Assembly: GCA_039545355.1 (NCBI GenBank)
Contig: BCJJ01000010.1
Span: forward strand, 1,104,889-1,168,888
Direction of reading: 5' to 3'
Length of the DNA stretch: 64,000 nt
From: Trichosporon coremiiforme
Lineage: Eukaryota > Basidiomycota > Tremellomycetes > Trichosporonales > Trichosporonaceae
Made by a program: the position numbers and the translations under genes. Below the pieces are notes generated by a model. The model was not told the DNA's origin, ran no database searches, and saw only the letters and a program-made list of their open reading frames with translations. Shown in pieces: positions 26,795 to 44,989 of the stretch (the first letter of the stretch is position 1; each line of letters begins with the position of its first letter).

Positions 26795-27229
26795 TTTGGC
26801 AGTGGGGTTTTCTTCTGAACCGATTAAAGACACAGAGAAGGTTGGAGATAAAAGCGGACGACATAAACGTCACAGGATGCTATCGGCCCGGAGGGGGGGC
26901 CGAGCGGCGAGCGGGGTTAGTGTGGAATTTATTTGGTCCCCTCTTTAAGACTTGTCCGAGCCCCGTCCCTCTGCGGACTTGCGGTCCGATGACCGGGCAA
27001 CCGACCTCGACTGCTAAACCCTCATCTCAGCGTTCCGCGCATTCGCGGAAGCGGAGGAAGGAGGGTGGGTTGCGGGGAAAGGTGGGTGGGGACGAGTGGA
27101 GTGATGACGGGCGACGATTGCATCGGTCGTCGCTGCAAAGGCAGTGCTCGATGCAAGGACCTGTGCGACGCATGAGCTTGCGGCGGCACGATCTATGACG
27201 ACGCGACTCACACCGGACAATCGCTCCGA

Positions 27230-27410
27230 CGGTCGATTAGTTTGATTCCGTCGAGTCAATATTGCGAGATCAGCATCGACCCTGTCGGCGGATCGAATTA
27301 GCACCAGTGGTGGCACATGGCAGTCGACACTTGCGCCGTCGTGTCACTTTGCTGACCCACGAGATAGTGCCCTGCGCCGTTCAGCTACTACCCCATGAGC
27401 TTAGCTTGTG
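27230..27410. repeat. Diverged direct repeat, copy A
   Basis: Shares ordered blocks with copy B about 313 bp downstream: CAGCATCGACC-CTGTCG, CACTTTGCTG (27345 against 27658), ATAGT-CC-TGCGCCGTTCA and ACCCCAYGAG. Blocks keep order and near-constant offset, so this is an old tandem duplication or two relics of one element. Confidence 0.55.
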
Positions 27411-27545
27411 GGGAAGGTGTGAGCCGGTGCGACGGGCGACGACTGCAGCGACGTCTCGTCGACGCTCTGGCTGTGGCGGCGATCGTATGATTGATACGAC
27501 GACCGTAACAAAGTAGAAACTTACGCCATCAGTGCACACGATGCT

Positions 27546-27725
27546 TGCCGATTGATCATCGACGCAATACTGTAAGGCCAGCATCGACCTGTCGACGAAT
27601 GCAACACCCACAAGCGAGTATCGACGACGATGACTCTGCGTCGACACAGCCGTCAGCCACTTTGCTGTTCCGCGGAATAGTACCTGCGCCGTTCACAGTA
27701 CCACCCCACGAGAGCCCAGCGGCGT
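27546..27725. repeat. Diverged direct repeat, copy B
   Basis: Partner of copy A. It ends in ACCACCCCACGAG and leads straight into the hairpin-repeat cluster, suggesting both belong to one decayed element. Confidence 0.55.
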
Positions 27726-27920
27726 GGCTGAACGGACCTCGGGCCAGTTTCCAGCGACCCGCACGGTAACACTCGGGGACACACATTTTCCAGCAGGACA
27801 TACTGCGGCGTGAGATCCCGTCGTGTCCAGCGATGGCGGCGTGGCACTAGAGGCACCGTCGAGACATCCCAATCGCCAGTGGTGAATCCGCGGAGGGTTT
27901 CCCCGAGGGCTCGTCCGAGT

Positions 27921-28050
27921 CAGTTTCCAGCGGTAGTCCGCGGCGTGACCCAGAAGACGATGTGCCTATGTGCCTGTGCGTTTCCAGCGGTCGAGTCCGC
28001 GGCGGCACGAGGTGCGCGTCTGCGCCAGTTTCCAGCGGGAATCCGCGACG
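27921..28050. repeat. Cluster of short hairpin repeats
   Basis: Three units of TTTCCAGCGG-N(4-6)-CCGCG occur at about 27924, 27981 and 28030. In each, GCGG and CCGC can pair across a 4-6 base loop (27930-27941, 27987-28000, 28035-28046). Weaker relatives lie near 27750, 27786 and 28151. Confidence 0.55.
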
Positions 28051-28407
28051 TGGCGACAGACTGGACGGCAGGAGAGTTCGACGACTGGTGGTAATCCATG
28101 ACGCGGTCTCCTGCTCACCCCAAGCACTCCGACGAGACCCGCCGGCGCCGTTTCCGGTGGGTCTGCGGTGCACCGGGCGTGTCGTAACGAGTGGCGAGGA
28201 AGGCAGGGTGAGAAAGTCGAAGTGGCGAAAAGTCAAAGTGGTGAGAAAGGCGTTAGGAGTGGCGTGAAAGCGAAAATCGCGGATACTGTACGTGTCGATG
28301 TAGAATGAGTCGACAGGAAAAAGGAGTAACCATGAAAAGATAACAACAAACACGACGAAACAGATCGACGAGGTGAGGTAACCCGGAGCCTAAACACCGG
28401 GCGTGGC

Positions 28408-29359
28408 ATGCCACTGAAAACGTCGCGTTCGCTTTCCTCGTCCTCAACAACCGCCGCCATGCTGACTCGCGAACAGCTCGAGCGCCTGAACAAGCTTTTC
28501 AGCGGCCTCACGACGATCAACATTGTCGGGTTCGAGGCCGAGAGCACTGATAGCGACACGGGCGACAAGCACCGCGCCCCTTCGTCGGACGGCGTCGATT
28601 CGCTCGCAGAAGATCTTCACTTCATCGACACGGGCGTCAAACGGCCTGCAAGCCGTTCATCGAGTCTATCAAACGGGAAGCGCGCTCGCACAGACGCAGA
28701 CGCCTTGACGTTCCTCGATTCACGCAAACGCACGGCCTTGCCTCCCCGCACACCGACGAACCCGCCTCAAAGACGCACCGCCCCGACGAGACCTCCTCCC
28801 CCCCGAGCAGACGTCCCGCGCGAGACTCGTTCGACGACGGACCAGAACCGACGTCGGAACAGGCCGCGATCAACGACCTGATCGTTCAAGGCGACGCCCC
28901 GTGTTTGTCACGGGTGAAGCGGGAACTGGAAAGTCGACGCTGATCCGTTACACCACTCGCCGCTTCCGCGCCCAAGGCCTCAAAGTTGTCATCACGCCGT
29001 ACACGGGAATGGCGGCGTCGATCGTCGACAGGGGCACGCTCTGCAACTGGGGCGGCTCGGGTATCGGCATCAGTGGCTGGGTGACACTGTCGCCAGACCG
29101 GGCGCAGCAACGTGTACGCGAAACCGACGTCCTCATAATCGACGAGATCTCGCTTGTGTCGGCGGCTTATTTCGACGGACTCGCCAAGTTTGCGCGTATC
29201 CACCGCAAGAGCACGCAGACTGCGCCTGCGCATCATGTGTTCGGCGGGATCCGCCAGCCATGGCCGGTCGTTCAAGAATCTGACAGTGCACGCACGCGGA
29301 GCCTGGGAGACAGGCCAGGATGGGGAATTGTTTGTGCCTCCCCTTTAGTAACAATGTAA
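28408..29359 (+). pseudogene. Truncated, frameshifted PIF1-like helicase
   Basis: The N-terminal frame opens at 28408 (MLTREQLERLNKLF, then Ser-rich disorder). A second frame carries SEQAAINDLIVQGDAP, and a third starts with VFVTGEAGTGKSTLIRY (Walker A) at about 28900, then TPYTGMAASIV and VLIIDEISLV (Walker B) before HHVFGG near 29250. Between DAP and VFVTG one C appears to be missing, so the helicase motifs are out of frame with the upstream part. After HHVFGG the expected GDFxQLPP motif and helicase domain 2 are gone and unrelated sequence follows. No intron with the local branch box repairs either break. Fungal PIF1-like genes include eukaryotic PIF1 paralogues and Helitron helicases; the fragment is too short to decide. 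A single-base sequencing error could explain the frameshift but not the truncation. Confidence 0.7.
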
Positions 29360-29841
29360 CAATGCGGTGTGGTCTCCGTCGTCTCCGTATCACGCGTGAA
29401 GCCCCTAACAGGCCGCCCTGGGACGACGCCCTGAGGATGCAAACAGGCCTCCGCGGCTGGTATACGCTGGTGGGACTGGCTGGACCTGGACCCGTATGGT
29501 GGGTCGGGGTCGGGTCTGAGCTTTCGTGGTCGGGCTCGCATCGCTTCACAAGTGGTACAGGGAAAACGACCCTAGCTAACGATCACCCTCCCTTGCACTT
29601 CTCGTTCGCCCGTCACGTCCATCTTTGCATCCTCCCATCCCACACCGGGTCTCCTCTCTCTTTCGCGCGCCTCGTTGCTCGCTCGTTTGTCTTCACGGCC
29701 GCCGTTATCATACACAATATCTGGCAGTGCTGTGCATAGCCCATACCCCCCGACCGCCTCCGTGAGACGCTCAGCAACGACCGTTCCCACTCCCGACACC
29801 CACGTTCCTCGCCCTCCTCTCCGTCGTCCGCCCTCCTCAAC
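29360..29841. other. Intergenic stretch upstream of CHS7
   Basis: The first 200 bp may be more helicase-relic sequence. The last 250 bp are C/T-rich (CTCCTCTCTCTTTCGCG, CCTCGCCCTCCTCTCCGTC) and are the likely CHS7 promoter and leader. Confidence 0.4.
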
Positions 29842-31110
29842 ATGTCCACCACCGCCTCGTCTTCGGCCACGACGGCCGCAGCCTTCAAGTTCGGTTCATT
29901 TGACTGGGTCTGTGAAAGAGCTCAACTTACTGTATGCCCCCTGCTTGGCAGTTCGACCGGTATCGCCCCTACCTGCTACGCCCGAAATGTCCAGCTCGGA
30001 ACCCAGATCGTCTTCCAGCCTGGTACGTCGTCAACGTCAACGTTCGTCCCGTGCTGACATCCCGCAGCCACATGTATAGTGCACATTGCGGCTCTGGCGA
30101 TGACTCTGATCATGCTCTTCCACGTCCGATCCAAGTACACGGCCGTCGGCCGAAAGGAGATCGTTCTGTTCTTCTATATCTACATGTTTGTCGAGCTCCT
30201 CGCCGCATTCCTTGACTCTTCCGTCATCCCGACCTCGAACGTTGTATACCCCTGGTTCACGGCTATTTACGCGGGCGCTATCGGCGCTCTTTATTGGTGC
30301 CTGCTCGTCAACGGTTTCGTTGGCTTCCAGCTCTACGAGGACGGAACTCCCATGAGCCTCTGGGTAGGTCTGGTACCGCTGAAAGTCTGCTGACGCCAAA
30401 AGTTCTTGCGCCTCTCCTGTCTTCTCGTCGGTGGCATCTGCTTCATCGTCGCCGCCGGCACCTTCCAGGGCTGGGGAACCCTCAACTACCAGAACACGAT
30501 GGGCCTCTTCATCACCTACCTCGTGTACCCCCTCATCGCGGTTGCAATCTACATTGTGTCCCAGTTCATCCTGGTCATCCGCACCCTTGACGACCGATGG
30601 GTCATCGGTGACCTCTTGTTCGGCATCGGCTTCTACGTTGTCGGCTGCATTCTGCTGCTCGCCTTCAGCACCACCATCTGCGACGCCATCTCCCACTACC
30701 TGGACGGTGTCTTCTTCTTCACTCTTTGCATGCTGTTCACCGTCATGATGGTTTACAAGTACTGGGACTGTGAGTCGGGTATCTTGGGGGCTTGGCTAAC
30801 TCTCAGCGATCACGAAGGAGGACCTCGAGTTCTCGGTCGGCTCCAAGGTTGCGGTCTGGGAGGTCAAGGACCCTCTCCTCTCCGGCGTGAGTACAGAGAC
30901 TATGCGCCACTACTGCCACTCCCATGCATCCCGTACTGACTTCAGCCCAACACCGACTATATCGAGGACGACTCCCAGTCGGCGTACCGCGGCGCTGGCG
31001 GATCGCTTGTCGGTGGCTACGGTGGCAACGCCTACTACCAGGGCGGCTACTCCAAGTCCTCCTCCTCTTACGACCAGTTTAACGGCCAGGAGTACAACTC
31101 ACATTACTAG
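29842..31110 (+). CDS. CHS7: Chitin synthase export chaperone Chs7
   Basis: ER membrane chaperone needed for folding and export of a chitin synthase (Chs3 in yeast). Exons 29842-30022, 30068-30363, 30403-30769, 30807-30896 and 30946-31110. The N-terminus has [18 protein letters not shown] and the luminal [13 protein letters not shown]. Seven hydrophobic helices follow, with [14 protein letters not shown], the [14 protein letters not shown] loop, [13 protein letters not shown], and [12 protein letters not shown], all hallmarks of Chs7. The cytosolic tail has [15 protein letters not shown], joined across intron 3, then a Gly/Tyr/Ser-rich end ([21 protein letters not shown]). Length, about 365 residues, is typical. 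The next gene, DNMT5, starts 180 bp downstream on the same strand; no functional link is implied. Confidence 0.96.
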
Positions 31111-31290: not shown

Positions 31291-34200
31291 ATGACGGTGC
31301 AGCGGCGAGCACGGAAACCGGCAAGCTACGTCGACGTCGACTTGACGGCCGAGTCGGATGAGAAGATCATGCCTCTCACGACGAGCAAGCTGCAAAACAA
31401 GCGCAAGAGGGTGAGTTACACTTGATACAGACTTCGCTGACTGACAGAAGGTGGAGTCGCCGACGCCAAGCGAGGATAGCGATGTGCCCGACTTGGAAGA
31501 CGAAGAGTACGAGGTCGACCACATCGTCAAGTCTCGTCTCAAACAGTACGGAAAGAAGGTGGTCTTGGAGTACTTTATCCACTGGAAGAACTATCCCGAG
31601 GAGGAGCGTACATGGACATTAGCGGACCAGTTTGACGACGACGACCCGCCGGTCGTCGCGTTCTACAAGCAGAACCCGCGAGCGCCCCGAAGAGGACAGA
31701 GCACGCCTTTCTCTCTCCTCATGGGCAACAATGTCAAACCTGCGACGCCCAAGAAGGCTCCGGCGAAGAGCACCAAATCGACTTCGAAAGCTGCGAAACC
31801 CACCAAGGCGCCGGCGTCAGGCAAGGAAAACCGTGCGGCCAAGAAGCCCCGTGTGGCTGAAAGCGACGAGGACGAGGAGTTTGTCCCTCCGGAGGACGAC
31901 GATGTCGAGGACGATGACGACGACGATGACGACGACAATGTCGCCTCCGAGTCTGACGACCCCGCGGACGACTTTGATGAGGAGGATGAAGACTCAGAAG
32001 CTGCAAAGCCGACCAAGCTTGCGAAGAAGACGAACGGAAGCTGGGGTGTTGCGAACAAGGGTCCGAAGAAGGCGGCCGTCAAACTGTGAGTACACGTCCC
32101 GTGCCAGGCTGACTTCAGCGGCTCGTTCAAACCCAAGATCAAGCCCCTCAGCATCAAGGAGTCGACCGGAGCTGCGCATAGTGCGAACGAAGCCCTTCCG
32201 CCGATTCACGATATCCCCGCGATGTTTGACCACATGGTGTCCCGTGTGCCGACCATTGTCGACGTTGTCAAACGGCTTAACGGACGCAAGCTTCGTGTCG
32301 CCACCATGTGCTCGGGTACAGAGTCGCCCCTTCTCGCCCTCAACATGATCGCCAACTCGATGGAGGAGCAGTACGACGTCAAGCTCAACGTGGAGCACGT
32401 ATTCTCCTGCGAGATTGAGCCTTTCAAGCAGGCGTACATCGAGCGCAACTTCCGACCGCCGATCCTCTTCCGTGACGTGACCGAGCTGGGGCGCAAGAAG
32501 GCGCACACCGCCTACGGTTCCCTCGTTGACGTCCCGGGAAACGTCGATCTCCTGATTGCGGGAACGTCATGTGTGGACTACTCCGGACTGAACAACGTCA
32601 AGCAGGACATTGATGCCAATGGTGAATCGGGACGGACCTTCCGCGGCATGCTGCAGTGGGTCAACAAGCACCGGCCACCGGTCGTTATTCTGGAGAATGT
32701 CTGCAGTGCCCCGTGGGACAAAGTCGTTCAATATTTCGGCGAGATCAACTATGACGCGAACTACGTTCGCCTGGACACCAAAGAGTTCTACATTCCGCAC
32801 ACTCGAACCCGCGTCTATCTCTACGCGACGCCGATGGAGGGCAAGAAAGCGGAGCACCTGCCAGAGAAGTGGATGGAAACTGTGAAGGCACTCCGACGAC
32901 CTTGGTCGTCATCATTCGAGGCGTTCCTGTTGCCGGCGGACCACCCTGACATTCACCGTGCTCGACTCGACCTCGCGGCAGCCAAATATTACAACGACGG
33001 CTCGCAACGGAAACCGACCGATTGGGGACGGTGCGAGTCTCGTCATGCTCGAGCGCGCCAGGAGGAGGAGCTCGGCAACCTGCGTCCGCTCACGGCATGG
33101 AAGGAGGCAGGCGTCTGCAAAGGGCTTGACTGGACCTGGAACGATTGGTTGCAGGCGCAGACAGAGCGCGTTGTCGATCTTCTTGAAATCTCCACTCTGC
33201 GCATGGCAAAGGAGGGTATCGATTCTGGGTTCAAGGCATGCATCTGGAACGTCTCTCAGAATGTAGACAGACAGACCGGCTCATCTCGAACGGCCCTGGC
33301 GCAGTGTCTGACGCCCAACATGATCCCATGGGTCACAAACCGCGGTGGACCCGTTATCGGCCGCGAGGCGCTGTCTCTGCAGGGTATCCCGGTCCGTGAA
33401 CTCCTCCTTACGAGCGAGAGCGAGGACCAGCTTGCCGATCTCGCAGGCAATGCAATGACCTCGACCGTCGTTGGAGCCTCGATCATAGCCGCCCTCCAGC
33501 TGACCGTCGGCAAGCTCGAGGAGGGCGAGGACGCAATGAAGGCGGCCGCTGAGCAGAAAGCAGAGGAGGCTCAAAACAAGCCCGCTACCATCGTGGGAAG
33601 CGGATCCCTCACACCCCAACGACTGGATCTCGCCAAGGTCGACTCTGCCTCGCTTCAGAAGGTTCTTCGCGCAGCCCAGAAGAGTTCGCGTCACTGCGAG
33701 TGCGAAGGACAGTCTGGGACAGCGTCTGCGCCGATCGACGAGTGCACGCTCTGCGGCTACCGCTCCTGCACCTCTTGCGGAGGTCGTCCCGAGCATGCCT
33801 ACCAGCAGTGCCGCACGAAGCGCCTTGAGCCAACTCAGTTCGAGCGTCTGTTCAAGTCTCTTCTTCCCATGCGTGTCAAGGTCGCTGGGCTCACCAGTGC
33901 CTCTCTGGACGTTGTGCGCCGCAAGGCGGGCCAGGAGGGCAAGGGCACTATTCCAGAGGCTACGTGGAGCATGTGGCGTGACGCTGTCGTCGAGGGCGTC
34001 AACGACGTCGAGCTGCGATTCCGTCTCCTAAAGCGCCAGAGCACATGGACCGCCGTGTACGAAGGACAGACTGCGATTCTCGAACTGTGGCTGAAGTCAA
34101 CTCCGGAATGGCGCCTCACGATCAAGACTCCGCCTGAGGAGCCTGTGAACAGCCCGTTGCGCAAGCTCCTCCTTCGCCCGGTCGCCCGCCTCCGACTCGA

Positions 34201-37200
34201 CCCCGAGAGCGACAACCTCCTCAGCGGTGACTGGGAGGTCTGCGTCCCGTCTCAGCAAGAGTTCCGTATCGAGGTCACCGGGTGCGGCGACAAAGTCCCG
34301 ACTTGGCAGGCGTCGCTCGGTCTCCAGGGTAAGTTTGTCGGCAACGAGCGCTGGTCCAAGGTCAACATCCAGGTCCCGCCTGAGGCGGAGCGCGCCCTCG
34401 ACAGAGATGTGTCGGGCGTCTACACTTTGCTGCCCAGGTGCGGACAGAACCAGGCTTCGCTTCACAAACAGGAGGGAAACAGCGAGGAGCCGCTGTTCTT
34501 CTACCTGAACGCGGACCGCGTCGGCAACTCCGCCGACGACCAATACATCTTCTCCACTTCGATCGAGCGCGTCGACTATGGGATGGAGCGCGACATTGTC
34601 GCCTCGCTCGACAAGAGGTGGCGTGAGACCACGCGGGTGTCTGAGACTCCCAAGCTCCACGTCAACGGTGGTTGGGTCGTGGCCACCGAGGCCAAGCTGG
34701 TTGCAGTCAAGGGCGCTAACATCGCCGTTGACGATGTCACTGCCCACGCGGACGAGGCGACGTTCGCTATCCCGAGCTCGTCAGAAGTCATCTCCACGGC
34801 GACCTCTGACTGCGACCAGAGTGTGGCGATTCTCTCGGTCACCGTTCCGCTCGACGCCAAGCACGCTGAGAACATGTGGACGAAGGGAACCTGGGGTCAG
34901 GTCGACCTCGACAGGATGGGCAACACGACGTTCGCGAATCTCGCCTGGATCACGGAGCGTCTGCCGCCTCTCGACAGCTTCTCCTCCTGGAGTGTTCTGA
35001 ATAACTCCAAGTCGACGTGTCTCAAGTGCGCACCACGGCCACCCACTATCCACTGGATCAAGCAGTCCGGCAAGTTTGACACGGCTGGCCGCAAGACGAC
35101 AAAAACAATGAGCACAGTTATTGCCTTTGAGGATCGCAAGGAGGCAGGTGTCTATGAATACGTGAGTTCAATATGCCCTCAGCCTGCTGACCTTTATAGC
35201 GCCTGAAGCACAGGCCGCAGCCGTTCTCCGTGCAGCTTCGCCTCGACGATGGTACCGGTTCATTCCGCATCGGTCTCAATCCCTCGTCTTTGGCCCATCG
35301 TGCGATGGCCCGACTGCCACACGCGGGGCGCGATGACGTGACGCTCTCGTGGCGCCTTGTCACGTCCATTGTGGCGGAGGAGCCCCAGCCGCCCCGCGTT
35401 TTTCTGCTACCGAGCAACAAGCGCGACCCTCAGCGTCCCCAGCCGGAAGGCTTCCTGCTGCCACTCCGCAAGGAGCAGCTGAGGTCACTGTGGTGGATGC
35501 TCCAGCAGGAGAGGGCCCCGGGCAAGACGCACACGTTCGTCGAAGAGGAGATTTCCGAGGCCGCTCTTCCCGCGCTCGGCTGGCGCGCGGAGGGCAAGGC
35601 CGAGCGCCCCGTCATGGTTCGTGGCGGAGTTATCGCCGACCAGGTCGGTTATGGTAAAACGATCATTTCGCTCGCCCTCATCGCCGAGACCCGTAACGAG
35701 ATTGACGGTGACACGCCTGAGCCGCCCGGACTGATCGATGTCCGAGCCACTCTGATCATCGTTCCCGGCCATCTCAGCAAGCAGTGGCCGAGCGAGATTG
35801 AGCGCTTCACCGGCAATATGTTCCGCACGGTCGTGATTCAGACTATGAAGGACCTCGCGAGCGTCAGCATCGCCGACATCTCTAAGGCGGACATTGTCAT
35901 CATGGCGTCGGAGGTATTCGACTCGGACGTTTACTGGGAGCGGTTCGAGTACCTCGGAGCGCAGCCCGAGGGCTGGCTGAACGACAAGCAGGGTGGCCGC
36001 TTCTTCGGGGAACGGCTCGACACGGCTCTTGAGACTTTGCACCAGGAGACGGAGGCGCTCAAGGACGGTGCCGACAACGCCGTGGCTCTCATGAAGGGCC
36101 TCCATGAAAAGTCCAAGACGGATGCCCAAAACAAGCGCAACGAGCTGCGTGCGTCCAACTTTGGCAAGCGCCTCAAAGGCGCCGCGTACCGTGACAAATA
36201 TGACACTACCCAACCGCAGAAGAAGGAGAAGAAGTCTGCCTCCGGTAGCCGCTGGGAGGTCGACGACGATGAAGAGGAGGAGGATGGCTCCGAGGACATG
36301 GCCATTCCTGCGCCGACATTCCGCGACGCCAAGGGCACTGAATCCTATAGCAGCGCCAACGTCCGCAAGAACCACAAGCTCCTCTCTTGCCCGCTGCTGC
36401 ACATGTTCCGGTGAGTTAAACGCCTCCCCACGTCGTACTAACCCCAGGTTCCGCCGTGTAATCGCCGACGAGTTCACGTATCTTGAGAAGCGCCCTCTTG
36501 CTGCCGTGCTCCGCCTCTCGTCCTGCTACAAGTGGATGCTGTCCGGCACGCCTCCCGTCGACGACTTTGCTTCTATCCGCACGATCGCCACGTTCATGGG
36601 TATTCACCTCGGCGTCGAGGATGACGCCGAAGGCAGTGCCCAGGCCAAGAAAGCCAGGGCGAAGGAGCAGACCGCAGCTGAGCGTTTCCATGCGTTCCGC
36701 GAAACGCACTCTGAGGCCTGGCACCGTCGCCGTGATGACCTCGCACAAGAGTTCCTCAACACCTTTGTCCGACAAAACATTGCCGAGATCGACGACATTC
36801 CGACGACGGAGCACATTCACTCCATTCGTCTTCCCGCCTCTGAGGGCGCGGTCTATCTGGAGCTCGAGCACCATCTTCAGGCACTCGAGATGCAGGCGTA
36901 GGTTTCTCTTCAGCGTTTCGAGGGCACTGACACACCAGGCGCAAGGAGACAAAGTTCAAGAACGTCACCGTCGGCGACCGCAACGCTCGTCTGGAGGAGG
37001 CTCTCGCCGACTCCAAGACCGCCGAGGAGGCTCTTCTCAAGCGATGCTGCCACTTCACCCTTGACCTCATGAACCGCAAGTTTGACGCCAAAACGGCACA
37101 GGAGGCGTGTGAGCACATTGCCTCTGTCCGCCGCGCCCAGCTCCTGGCATGCGAGGAGGACCTGCGGCGCACGATAAACAATGCTGTCGCATTAAACGCC

Positions 37201-38328
37201 TACGTCAAGAAGAAGAGCGGTTTCTCCTCGGACGAGCGCCAGCCGTTCAAGGAATGGGCAAAGCTGTCCTTCGACGTCTCCAAGCACGACGGCGACGTTG
37301 AGGCGGCTGAGCGCCTCATCGCCTTGCTCGAGAGCTGCGGCTTTGAGAAGGGCGCGATCCCCTTTGCACCCCTGGACGGCAAGATTTCCAAGGTCTCCGG
37401 CAATCCAGAGGATGTCAAGTGGGAGCTGCGTGAGCAAACCCATCTCCTCCGTCGTCTTGCCAAAGAGCTCGTCGGCCGTGTCCGCTCGCTGCGATTCTTT
37501 GAAGTCGTTCGTAACCTGCAACTTCGCGGCGACGAGGCGACTGCCGTCCTCGAGGGCAGTGAGTGCGGCCACACGCGCTCCGACGACAAGATGGCAATTC
37601 TCAGTTGCTGCGGCCACGTCGCTTGTCTCGAGTGCACGACGGAAGCTGTCAACCATCAGAAGTGTGTCAAGCCTGACTCGTGCCATGCCCCCGTGCGCCA
37701 CACCAACGTCGTCAAGGTCTCCACGCTCGGCGTCGAGGGCGAGCTGTCCTCCGGCCGATATGGCGCCAAACTGCAGCGCCTCGTCGATCTCATCCGCTCG
37801 ATCCCCAAGAAGGAGCGCATCCTCGTGTTCCTGCAGTGGGACGATCTCATGGCCAAGGTGTCTGAGGCTCTTGACGCGGGCGGCATCGGGCACGTCACGC
37901 TGGCTGGCGGTGTCAAGGCGAAGGCAAACACGCTCGATGCGTTCCAGAAGGGTAACAGCGCCCGCGTCCTCGTGCTCAAGATGAACGACGCCTCAGCAGC
38001 CGGTTCGAACCTGACGATGGCCAACCACGCCATCTTCATCGGCCCGCTGCTCACGCCGACGCTGCTCAACTACCGCTCCACGGAGACGCAGGCGATTGGC
38101 CGTGTCCGTCGCTTCGGACAGGAGAAGAAGGTCCACATCCACCGCCTCCTCGTCCAGGACACGATCGACTACACCATTTTCAATGCGCGCACGAAGGAGC
38201 TGTCCGAGAAGGCAGACTACGTCGCGCTGCCCCGCGGCGAGTATGTCCCGGGGGCAGGGCGCAAGCCGCGCGTCACCGAGGACGTGATCGAGGTCGAGGA
38301 TGAGGACGAGGACGAGGACGATCTGTAG
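31291..38328 (+). CDS. DNMT5: DNMT5-type maintenance cytosine methyltransferase with SNF2 ATPase
   Basis: Exons 31291-31410, 31448-32085, 32119-35161, 35200-36410, 36448-36897 and 36939-38328 sum to 6852 nt, 2283 residues; introns are 33-41 nt. Domains in order: chromodomain about 60-115 (EYEVDHIV, YFIHWKNYPEEERTW; cage aromatics Y61, W86, Y89); a poly-Asp linker about 178-226; methyltransferase about 300-715 with VATMCSGTESP (SAM site), catalytic Cys near 404 in GTSCVDYSGLNN, and ILENV near 445; a Cys-rich motif about 775-815 (HCECEG, CTLCGYRSCTSCGG); SNF2 ATPase lobe 1 from about 1400 (DQVGYGKTI Walker A, IADEFTY motif II near 1676); a RING about 2028-2075 (CGHTR, CCGHVACLEC); and lobe 2 with IGRVRRFGQ near 2206. 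In Cryptococcus neoformans this enzyme alone maintains CpG methylation and uses ATP. Motifs for catalysis and ATP binding all appear intact here. Confidence 0.95.
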
Positions 38329-44800: not shown

Positions 44801-44989
44801 CCCACCGCGTTCCGCCCAGAGCACGACCAAACTTACTGTAGACCCCAAGCACACCACTGTATATTAGCCACAGACCCTAAGAACGCAGACATGTAAATCA
44901 GAAGAGCTAGAGTTGTAGCCGAGATATAACGGAAACCTATGCCATGCATTGCGTGTAGTGTACAACTTGATCTGATGTGCCCTAATGTT

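What the first reader, a model, noticed from the sequence alone, without database searches (positions are those of the whole stretch)
31291..38328. Complete DNMT5: chromodomain, methyltransferase, RING-split SNF2 ATPase in one 2283-residue chain
All domains of the ATP-dependent maintenance methyltransferase are present and in frame over six exons, with methyltransferase Cys near 404, ILENV, Walker A GYGKT, and the DEFTY motif. The chromodomain cage positions Y61, W86 and Y89 are kept. DNMT5 is patchy in fungi and is known chiefly from Cryptococcus, where it persists as the only cytosine methyltransferase. A chromodomain implies coupling to H3K9 methylation. An intact copy suggests this genome is methylated.
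Basis: partly seen in the sequence, partly recalled or inferred. Interest (0 to 1): 0.85.

Follow-up and report, generated by a model that had tools for sequence, protein, structure and literature searches.

The report
Duplicate DNMT5 genes in hybrid yeast
The gene is an intact DNMT5, an enzyme that probably copies DNA methylation marks, in what looks like a hybrid Trichosporon yeast that carries two intact copies of it plus a second type of methylating enzyme; it is an ordinary member of a known family in an unusual genome.

Summary
Best solved relative: 7r76, 3028 bits. Probably an ATP-driven CpG maintenance methyltransferase.

Three points change the interpretation. (1) The 42 Mb genome holds a second intact DNMT5 on contig C9 in a largely collinear block, 93.0% identical: a homeolog pair, fitting an allodiploid Trichosporon, perhaps T. 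coremiiforme (inference). (2) DNMT5 is not alone: a second, DNMT1-superclade methyltransferase gene is also present twice, open in both copies. Whether it is DnmtX, the de novo enzyme Cryptococcus lost, stayed unresolved. (3) SRA, Pre-SET/SET and chromoshadow genes each occur on two contigs.

Whether the genome is methylated is untested; 308 sampled 1-kb blocks show no general CpG depletion. DNMT5 is widespread in fungi.

The parts
31291..31410 (+). DNMT5 exon 1 (residues 1-40)
   Evidence: gene model
31448..32085 (+). DNMT5 exon 2 (residues 41-253, last codon split)
   Evidence: gene model
31508..31669 (+). chromodomain, residues 61-114; cage Y61, W86, Y89
   Evidence: PF00385 32.6 bits over cut-off 25.1; W86 in 21 of 21, Y89 in 20 of 20 and Y61 in 18 of 25 rows without a gap there, of 120 homologs
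32119..35161 (+). DNMT5 exon 3 (to residue 1267)
   Evidence: gene model
32387..32878 (+). C5-methyltransferase domain as matched by Pfam, residues 343-506; catalytic Cys404 codon at 32570-32572; ENV 445-447
   Evidence: PF00145 49.1 bits; C404, E445, N446 and V447 each in 120 of 120 homologs
35200..36410 (+). DNMT5 exon 4 (residues 1268-1671, last codon split)
   Evidence: gene model
35476..35904 (+). SNF2 N-lobe as matched by Pfam, residues 1360-1502; Walker A GYGKT 1417-1421 at 35647-35661
   Evidence: PF00176 54 bits; K1420 in 119 of 119 rows without a gap
36448..36897 (+). DNMT5 exon 5; DEFTY 1678-1682 at 36467-36481
   Evidence: gene model; D1678 and E1679 in 117 of 117 rows without a gap
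36939..38328 (+). DNMT5 exon 6 with stop codon
   Evidence: gene model
37564..37683 (+). RING-like Cys/His stretch, residues 2030-2069, between the two ATPase lobes
   Evidence: conserved Cys/His columns; no Pfam RING match
37768..38118 (+). Helicase_C lobe, residues 2098-2214, with QAIGRVRRFGQ (R2209, R2212)
   Evidence: PF00271 28.5 bits; R2209 in 117 of 117 and R2212 in 117 of 118 rows without a gap

Best explanation
The gene is an intact Tremellomycete DNMT5. It most likely works as the C. neoformans enzyme does: the chromodomain docks on H3K9-methylated nucleosomes, hemimethylated CpG activates the SNF2 ATPase, ATP reorganises the enzyme, and Cys404 attacks the target cytosine, so that CpG methylation is copied after replication. 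The anatomy, conservation, second copy and presence of candidate partner genes are shown here; each mechanistic step is inferred from the solved relative and the literature. The host is most likely an allodiploid Trichosporon hybrid, perhaps T. coremiiforme, that kept both parental DNMT5 copies.
For: All domains and named residues present in one frame. 7r76_A matches with 3028 bits over residues 117-2262, with a separate chromodomain match at 58-126. Of 322 columns invariant in 118 homologs, each copy departs at one, the same one; of 834 invariant in the 18 homologs P0002-P0019, C10 departs at 27 and C9 at 28, 26 of them shared. Second copy intact, dN 0.038 and dS 0.62 by NG86, 0.035 and 0.84 by YN00; with T. 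asahii-type protein as outgroup, 66 changes are private to C10 and 63 to C9, so neither copy has sped up. C9 stretches are largely collinear with window 19339-46835. Partner genes: SRA on C10 and C9, Pre-SET beside SET on C4 and C2, chromoshadow on C8 and C22. Hybrid: a 7% protein divergence of the parents with T. asahii as nearest relative is reported for T. coremiiforme (PMC6642101); here the DNMT5 pair differs by 7.0% and T. asahii is the nearest named relative.
Against: No activity or methylation data. dN/dS between the copies mostly reflects time before the merger and does not show that both are used now. 308 sampled 1-kb blocks have median CpG observed/expected 1.03, so no general footprint of 5mC decay is seen; heterochromatin was hardly sampled. 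The species name is weak: it leans on one gene pair, no T. inkin protein was among the listed homologs so T. ovoides (17%) is not excluded, the second methyltransferase pair differs by 21%, and open frames of flanking loci range from about 40 to 98% identity, non-coding frames included. The block is not fully collinear: window 26919-29382 has no counterpart and C9 has an insertion.
Confidence: 0.92

Rival explanations
1. It is a Rad8/Rad5-type DNA repair SNF2 protein, as public records name its orthologs, and not a DNA methyltransferase.
For: T. asahii, some Kwoniella and the PDB records carry the name DNA repair protein Rad8; the second solved match is a RAD5 protein.
Against: RAD5 reaches only 38 bits against 3028 for 7r76; a C5-methyltransferase domain with Cys404 and ENV as in 120 of 120 homologs. 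A review that compared both sets holds that the methylase-bearing 'Rad8' is likely DNMT5 (passage, PMC7862722).
Confidence: 0.03
2. Both copies are intact relics: the machinery is encoded but 5mC is absent or vestigial in this yeast.
For: No general CpG depletion in the sample; no RVT_1 or rve match in the 42 Mb assembly, so few classical targets; a near-identical DNA transposon family is present in at least 40 copies on many contigs.
Against: Strong constraint on both copies and presence of SRA, Pre-SET/SET and second methyltransferase genes on two contigs each. A young hybrid has had little time to decay, so intactness is weak evidence either way.
Confidence: 0.12
3. The C9 copy comes from a segmental duplication, not from a second parent species.
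For: Two copies at 84-87% nucleotide identity in largely collinear order would also follow an old segmental duplication.
Against: Four other gene kinds looked at (second methyltransferase, SRA, Pre-SET with its SET, chromoshadow) also lie on two contigs each, and C1 and C3 are collinear around theirs; published Trichosporon hybrids fit. The other 18 SET matches were not checked for pairing.
Confidence: 0.04

Closest known systems
Cryptococcus neoformans Dnmt5 (7r76, 7r77, 7r78, 7t02; species and name are recalled and agree with review passages, the PDB label reads DNA repair protein Rad8)
   Same: Aligned over residues 117-2262 plus the chromodomain; cage aromatics, catalytic Cys, Walker A and DEFTY kept in the alignments shown.
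   Different: Here two copies exist, and a second DNMT1-superclade methyltransferase accompanies them; Cryptococcus species are reported to have Dnmt5 only, with C. depauperatus lacking both (PMC11185503 passages).
Trichosporon asahii DNMT5 (P0001; P0020 is an unnamed near-identical record)
   Same: P0001 is 91.4% identical to both copies over about 2025 aligned residues.
   Different: The public model P0001 lacks most of residues about 660-935 and the DEFTY stretch 1655-1685 and carries a Chs7 piece instead; the window gene is complete.
Kwoniella DnmtX (for the second methyltransferase, not for the window gene)
   Same: DNMT1-superclade methyltransferase beside DNMT5 in a Tremellomycete (passages of PMC11185503, and PMC7862722).
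   Different: No BAH match in Pfam and no protein named Kwoniella among the listed homologs; orthology not shown.

Membership tests
DNMT5 | C5-methyltransferase domain with catalytic Cys and ENV | tested here: met
   PF00145 49.1 bits; C404, E445, N446, V447 as in 120 of 120 homologs
DNMT5 | SNF2 ATPase fused C-terminally, with Walker A, DE box and conserved arginines of the second lobe | tested here: met
   PF00176 and PF00271 above cut-off; motif columns
DNMT5 | RING-type zinc stretch between the ATPase lobes | tested here: met
   seven Cys/His positions 2030-2069 kept in 106-117 of 120 homologs; met by pattern only, no Pfam RING model matched
DNMT5, Tremellomycete form | N-terminal chromodomain with aromatic cage | tested here: met
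   PF00385 32.6 bits; Y61, W86, Y89
DNMT5 | closest solved structure is a DNMT5 | tested here: met
   7r76_A, 3028 bits; next distinct sequence 38 bits; that 7r76 is Dnmt5 is recalled
DNMT5 | ATP-dependent activity specific for hemimethylated CpG | not testable with these tools
   needs purified protein
DNMT5, Tremellomycete form | chromodomain binds H3K9-methylated tails | not testable with these tools
   needs binding assay; Pre-SET/SET genes present
DnmtX (second methyltransferase on C1 and C3) | belongs to the DNMT1 superclade | tested here: met
   the 28 best-ranked of 47 solved matches are DNMT1-type chains (two of them DIM-2), best 8.6e-26; bacterial C5 methylases and DNMT2 follow; no tree was built
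DnmtX (second methyltransferase on C1 and C3) | BAH domain before the methyltransferase domain | tested here: inconclusive
   no BAH in Pfam at E up to 1; model of P0121 weak, mean pLDDT 53.5; alignments with DNMT1, MET1 and DIM-2 chains that reach its N terminus have rmsd of 13 or more
DnmtX (second methyltransferase on C1 and C3) | ortholog of the Kwoniella gene | tested here: inconclusive
   only T. asahii P0121 and unnamed P0122, P0236, P0237 are close; the other listed hits are 20-41% identical; candidate lists were capped at about 8000
DnmtX (second methyltransferase on C1 and C3) | de novo methylation activity | not testable with these tools
   needs an assay or expression in a host without 5mC

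The most novel reading that the evidence does not exclude
The Trichosporon lineage kept both a maintenance enzyme (DNMT5) and a separate, faster-evolving DNMT1-superclade enzyme that is the DnmtX ortholog or a Trichosporon-specific de novo enzyme, and a natural hybrid now carries two intact sets of the whole pathway. Two parental methylation systems would then meet in one nucleus, in a genome where one DNA transposon family has lately spread over both subgenomes.
Probability: 0.35. Interest if true: 0.55.

Novelty: new member of a known kind. Interest (0 to 1): 0.34.

Why it matters
The DNMT5 itself adds a well-formed member to a known family and shows up a faulty public model from its nearest named relative. 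The setting is of more use: if the hybrid is methylated, its two DNMT5 copies and the second methyltransferase pair allow tests of how methylation inherited from two parents is kept, and whether the loss of a de novo enzyme in Cryptococcus is an exception among Tremellomycetes. Neither needs a new mechanism.

Tried and rejected
Rad8/Rad5 repair protein: rejected on the methyltransferase domain and scores. DNMT5 as sole cytosine methyltransferase: rejected by the genome-wide PF00145 search, whose five matches fall in four genes. Filing the second methyltransferase as DnmtX: not done, because BAH and orthology stayed open; no Kwoniella name was in the listed rows. Testing methylation by CpG decay in retrotransposons: no RVT_1 and no rve match in the assembly. 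The strongest CpG dip in the sample turned out to be a DNA transposon; all 40 scored copies, the query among them, are 100% identical after rounding, so its CpG content predates its spread and says nothing about present methylation. A Trichosporon DNA methylation paper was sought (Trichosporon, DNA methylation, methyltransferase, 5mC, Trichosporonales, at least 3 of 5; Trichosporon coremiiforme, subgenome, gene loss, hybrid, DNA methyltransferase, at least 3 of 5); none on that subject was in the rows listed, 20 of 4,452 and 10 of 1,171, so this is no proof that none exists. A search for Trichosporon transposon papers (20 of 515 listed) gave nothing on Trichosporon in the rows listed. YN00 failed for the second pair; only NG86 is quoted. 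Of 20 SET matches only the two next to Pre-SET were followed. Full gene models were not built for the SET and chromoshadow genes.

Full report
What is there. The window gene runs from ATG 31291 to TAG 38328 on the + strand in six exons and encodes 2283 residues without a stop. The five introns are 33 to 41 bases long and GT..AG. Pfam finds a chromodomain, a DNA methylase domain, an SNF2 domain and a Helicase_C domain above their cut-offs. Seven Cys and His positions at 2030-2069 lie between the two ATPase lobes and are kept in 106 to 117 of 120 homologs; Pfam gave no RING hit there. The only strong solved relative is 7r76_A with 3028 bits; the next distinct sequence, a RAD5 protein, has 38 bits. 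The PDB label of 7r76 is DNA repair protein Rad8; that it is the C. neoformans Dnmt5 is recalled and agrees with review passages on the cryo-EM work (PMC13297926).

Is it intact? In an alignment of both genome copies with the 120 listed homologs (of 843 found), the catalytic Cys and ENV are the same in 120 of 120, the Walker A lysine in 119 of 119 rows without a gap, and the DE box in 117 of 117. Of 322 columns invariant in 118 homologs (P0001 and P0020 left out; columns filled in at least 90% of rows), each of the two copies departs at one, and it is the same one. Of 834 columns invariant in P0002 to P0019, the window copy departs at 27 and the other at 28, 26 of them shared.

A second copy. 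A DNA search of the genome with 3041 bases of the gene found the window and one other place, contig C9, at 87%. The C9 gene has introns at the same five places and encodes 2279 residues. The proteins agree at 2116 of 2275 aligned residues, 93.0%; NG86 gives dN 0.038 and dS 0.62, YN00 dN 0.035 and dS 0.84. Stretches of C9 on both sides are largely collinear with window 19339-46835; window 26919-29382 has no counterpart there, and C9 carries an insertion. With T. asahii-type sequence as outgroup, 66 changes are private to the window copy and 63 to the C9 copy (25 ambiguous, 2206 sites), so neither has become fast. Most of this divergence is presumably older than the merger, so the ratio does not prove that both copies are in use.

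Which organism. The best named homolog is from Trichosporon asahii, 91.4% identical to both copies. The assembly has 42.0 Mb in 134 contigs. Sriswasdi and colleagues report two hybrid Trichosporon species: T. coremiiforme, with 7% protein divergence between its parents and T. asahii as closest relative of both subgenomes, and T. ovoides, with 17% and T. inkin (PMC6642101; abstract, introduction and first results section read). The DNMT5 pair here differs by 7.0%, the second methyltransferase pair by 21%. In a small local sample of open frames, coding or not, pair identity runs from about 40 to 98%, with several long frames at 87 to 98%. No T. inkin protein was in the list, so T. ovoides is not excluded. 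T. coremiiforme is a guess; an allodiploid Trichosporon is the firmer claim.

Rest of the pathway. The PF00145 search returned five matches that belong to four genes: two DNMT5 and a pair on C1 and C3. The pair are C5-methyltransferases of 606 and 605 residues in five exons, both open in my models, 79.0% identical (477 of 604), dN 0.149 and dS 0.95, so by NG86 the protein changes about four times faster than DNMT5. In both, intron 2 splits the codon of the catalytic Cys. The best solved matches are DNMT1 and MET1 chains. No further PF00145 gene, DNMT2 included, appeared in that search. An SRA gene lies on C10 and on C9; Pfam confirms the SRA domain in the C9 protein as I joined it. A Pre-SET match lies next to a SET match on both C4 and C2, and a partial chromoshadow match on both C8 and C22. 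A review passage says that a reduced UHRF1 homolog assists DNMT5 in C. neoformans; that Clr4 and an HP1 protein also take part is recalled.

Is the second enzyme DnmtX? Kwoniella species have DNMT5 and DnmtX, Cryptococcus species only DNMT5 (C. depauperatus neither), and Bullera alba has lost DnmtX (PMC11185503 passages). DnmtX is described as a BAH plus methyltransferase protein and a de novo enzyme of the DNMT1 superclade (PMC7862722 passages), and as an orphan (PMC10538959 passages). Here Pfam found no BAH at E up to 1. Two protein searches listed T. asahii P0121 and the unnamed P0122, P0236 and P0237 as close; all other listed hits are 20 to 41% identical, the higher values over short stretches. 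Both searches scored only about 8000 candidates, so a distant Kwoniella protein could have been missed. A model of P0121 is poor (mean pLDDT 53.5, seven sequences); its catalytic part matches HaeIII, HhaI, DNMT1, DIM-2 and DNMT2 chains. Orthology stays open.

Is the genome methylated? Not tested. In 308 one-kilobase blocks (the window, five loci around the genes, and the first 10 kb of 20 small contigs) median CpG observed/expected is 1.03 and the 5% point 0.86. That speaks against pervasive methylation-driven decay in the sampled DNA, which is presumably mostly genic, and says nothing about heterochromatin. The lowest block lies in the insertion on C9 that is absent from the window.

Comparison with what is known. 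DNMT5 is neither rare nor chiefly cryptococcal: 843 proteins passed E 0.001, and the 120 listed include many Agaricomycetes, rusts, some chytrids and Ascomycota. The chromodomain is listed for 21 of those 120, of which 19 are Tremellomycetes or an unnamed T. asahii-like record (counted by eye). So this gene is a new member of a known kind. What is less ordinary is the doubled pathway in a hybrid and the second methyltransferase beside it. The interest score reflects that the enzyme itself is expected in this class of fungi.

Noticed in passing
L012:5375-7135 (C9:1201374-1203134); empty site near window 44946-44985: A 1761-base Tc1/mariner-type DNA transposon (inverted ends, TA target, HTH_Tnp_Tc3_2 and DDE_3 matches) sits in the C9 block and not in the window. 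A genome search gave 133 candidates, of which 40 were scored; all 40, the query copy included, match at 100% (rounded) over 1753-1759 of 1759 bases, on contigs that include both C9 and C10, so the family spread very recently and over both subgenomes.
   Followed up: partly
window 26919-29382: About 2.4 kb without a counterpart in the C9 block. The frame 28709-29356 (+) in it matches PIF1-like helicase (PF05970, 50.6 bits), incomplete; possibly a mobile-element or gene remnant.
   Followed up: partly
C1:61157-62119 (L009) and C3:1290137-1291079 (L010): Second cytosine methyltransferase pair, fast-evolving, close relatives only in T. asahii and unnamed records among the listed hits; catalytic Cys codon split by an intron in both copies.
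   Followed up: partly
L013 (C10:742926) and L014 (C9:793902): The SRA protein pair carries a long run of AT-hook-like motifs after the SRA domain, 12 in the C10 frame and 11 in the C9 frame; Pfam named only SRA in the C9 protein.
   Followed up: partly
P0001 (T. asahii CBS 8904): The public DNMT5 model of T. asahii contains a Chs7 piece at 657-752 and lacks the matching methyltransferase part and the DEFTY stretch; a frame with the Chs7 domain lies just upstream of DNMT5 in the window (30394-30939), so the model looks misjoined.
   Followed up: yes
whole genome G000: No RVT_1 and no rve match in 42 Mb: recognisable LTR retrotransposons are missing from the assembly or from the genome.
   Followed up: no
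listing; P0034: The chromodomain is listed in 21 of 120 DNMT5 homologs, 19 of them Tremellomycete-type; in P0034 (Gaertneriomyces) a chromodomain-like stretch lies inside the SNF2 part and not at the N terminus.
   Followed up: no
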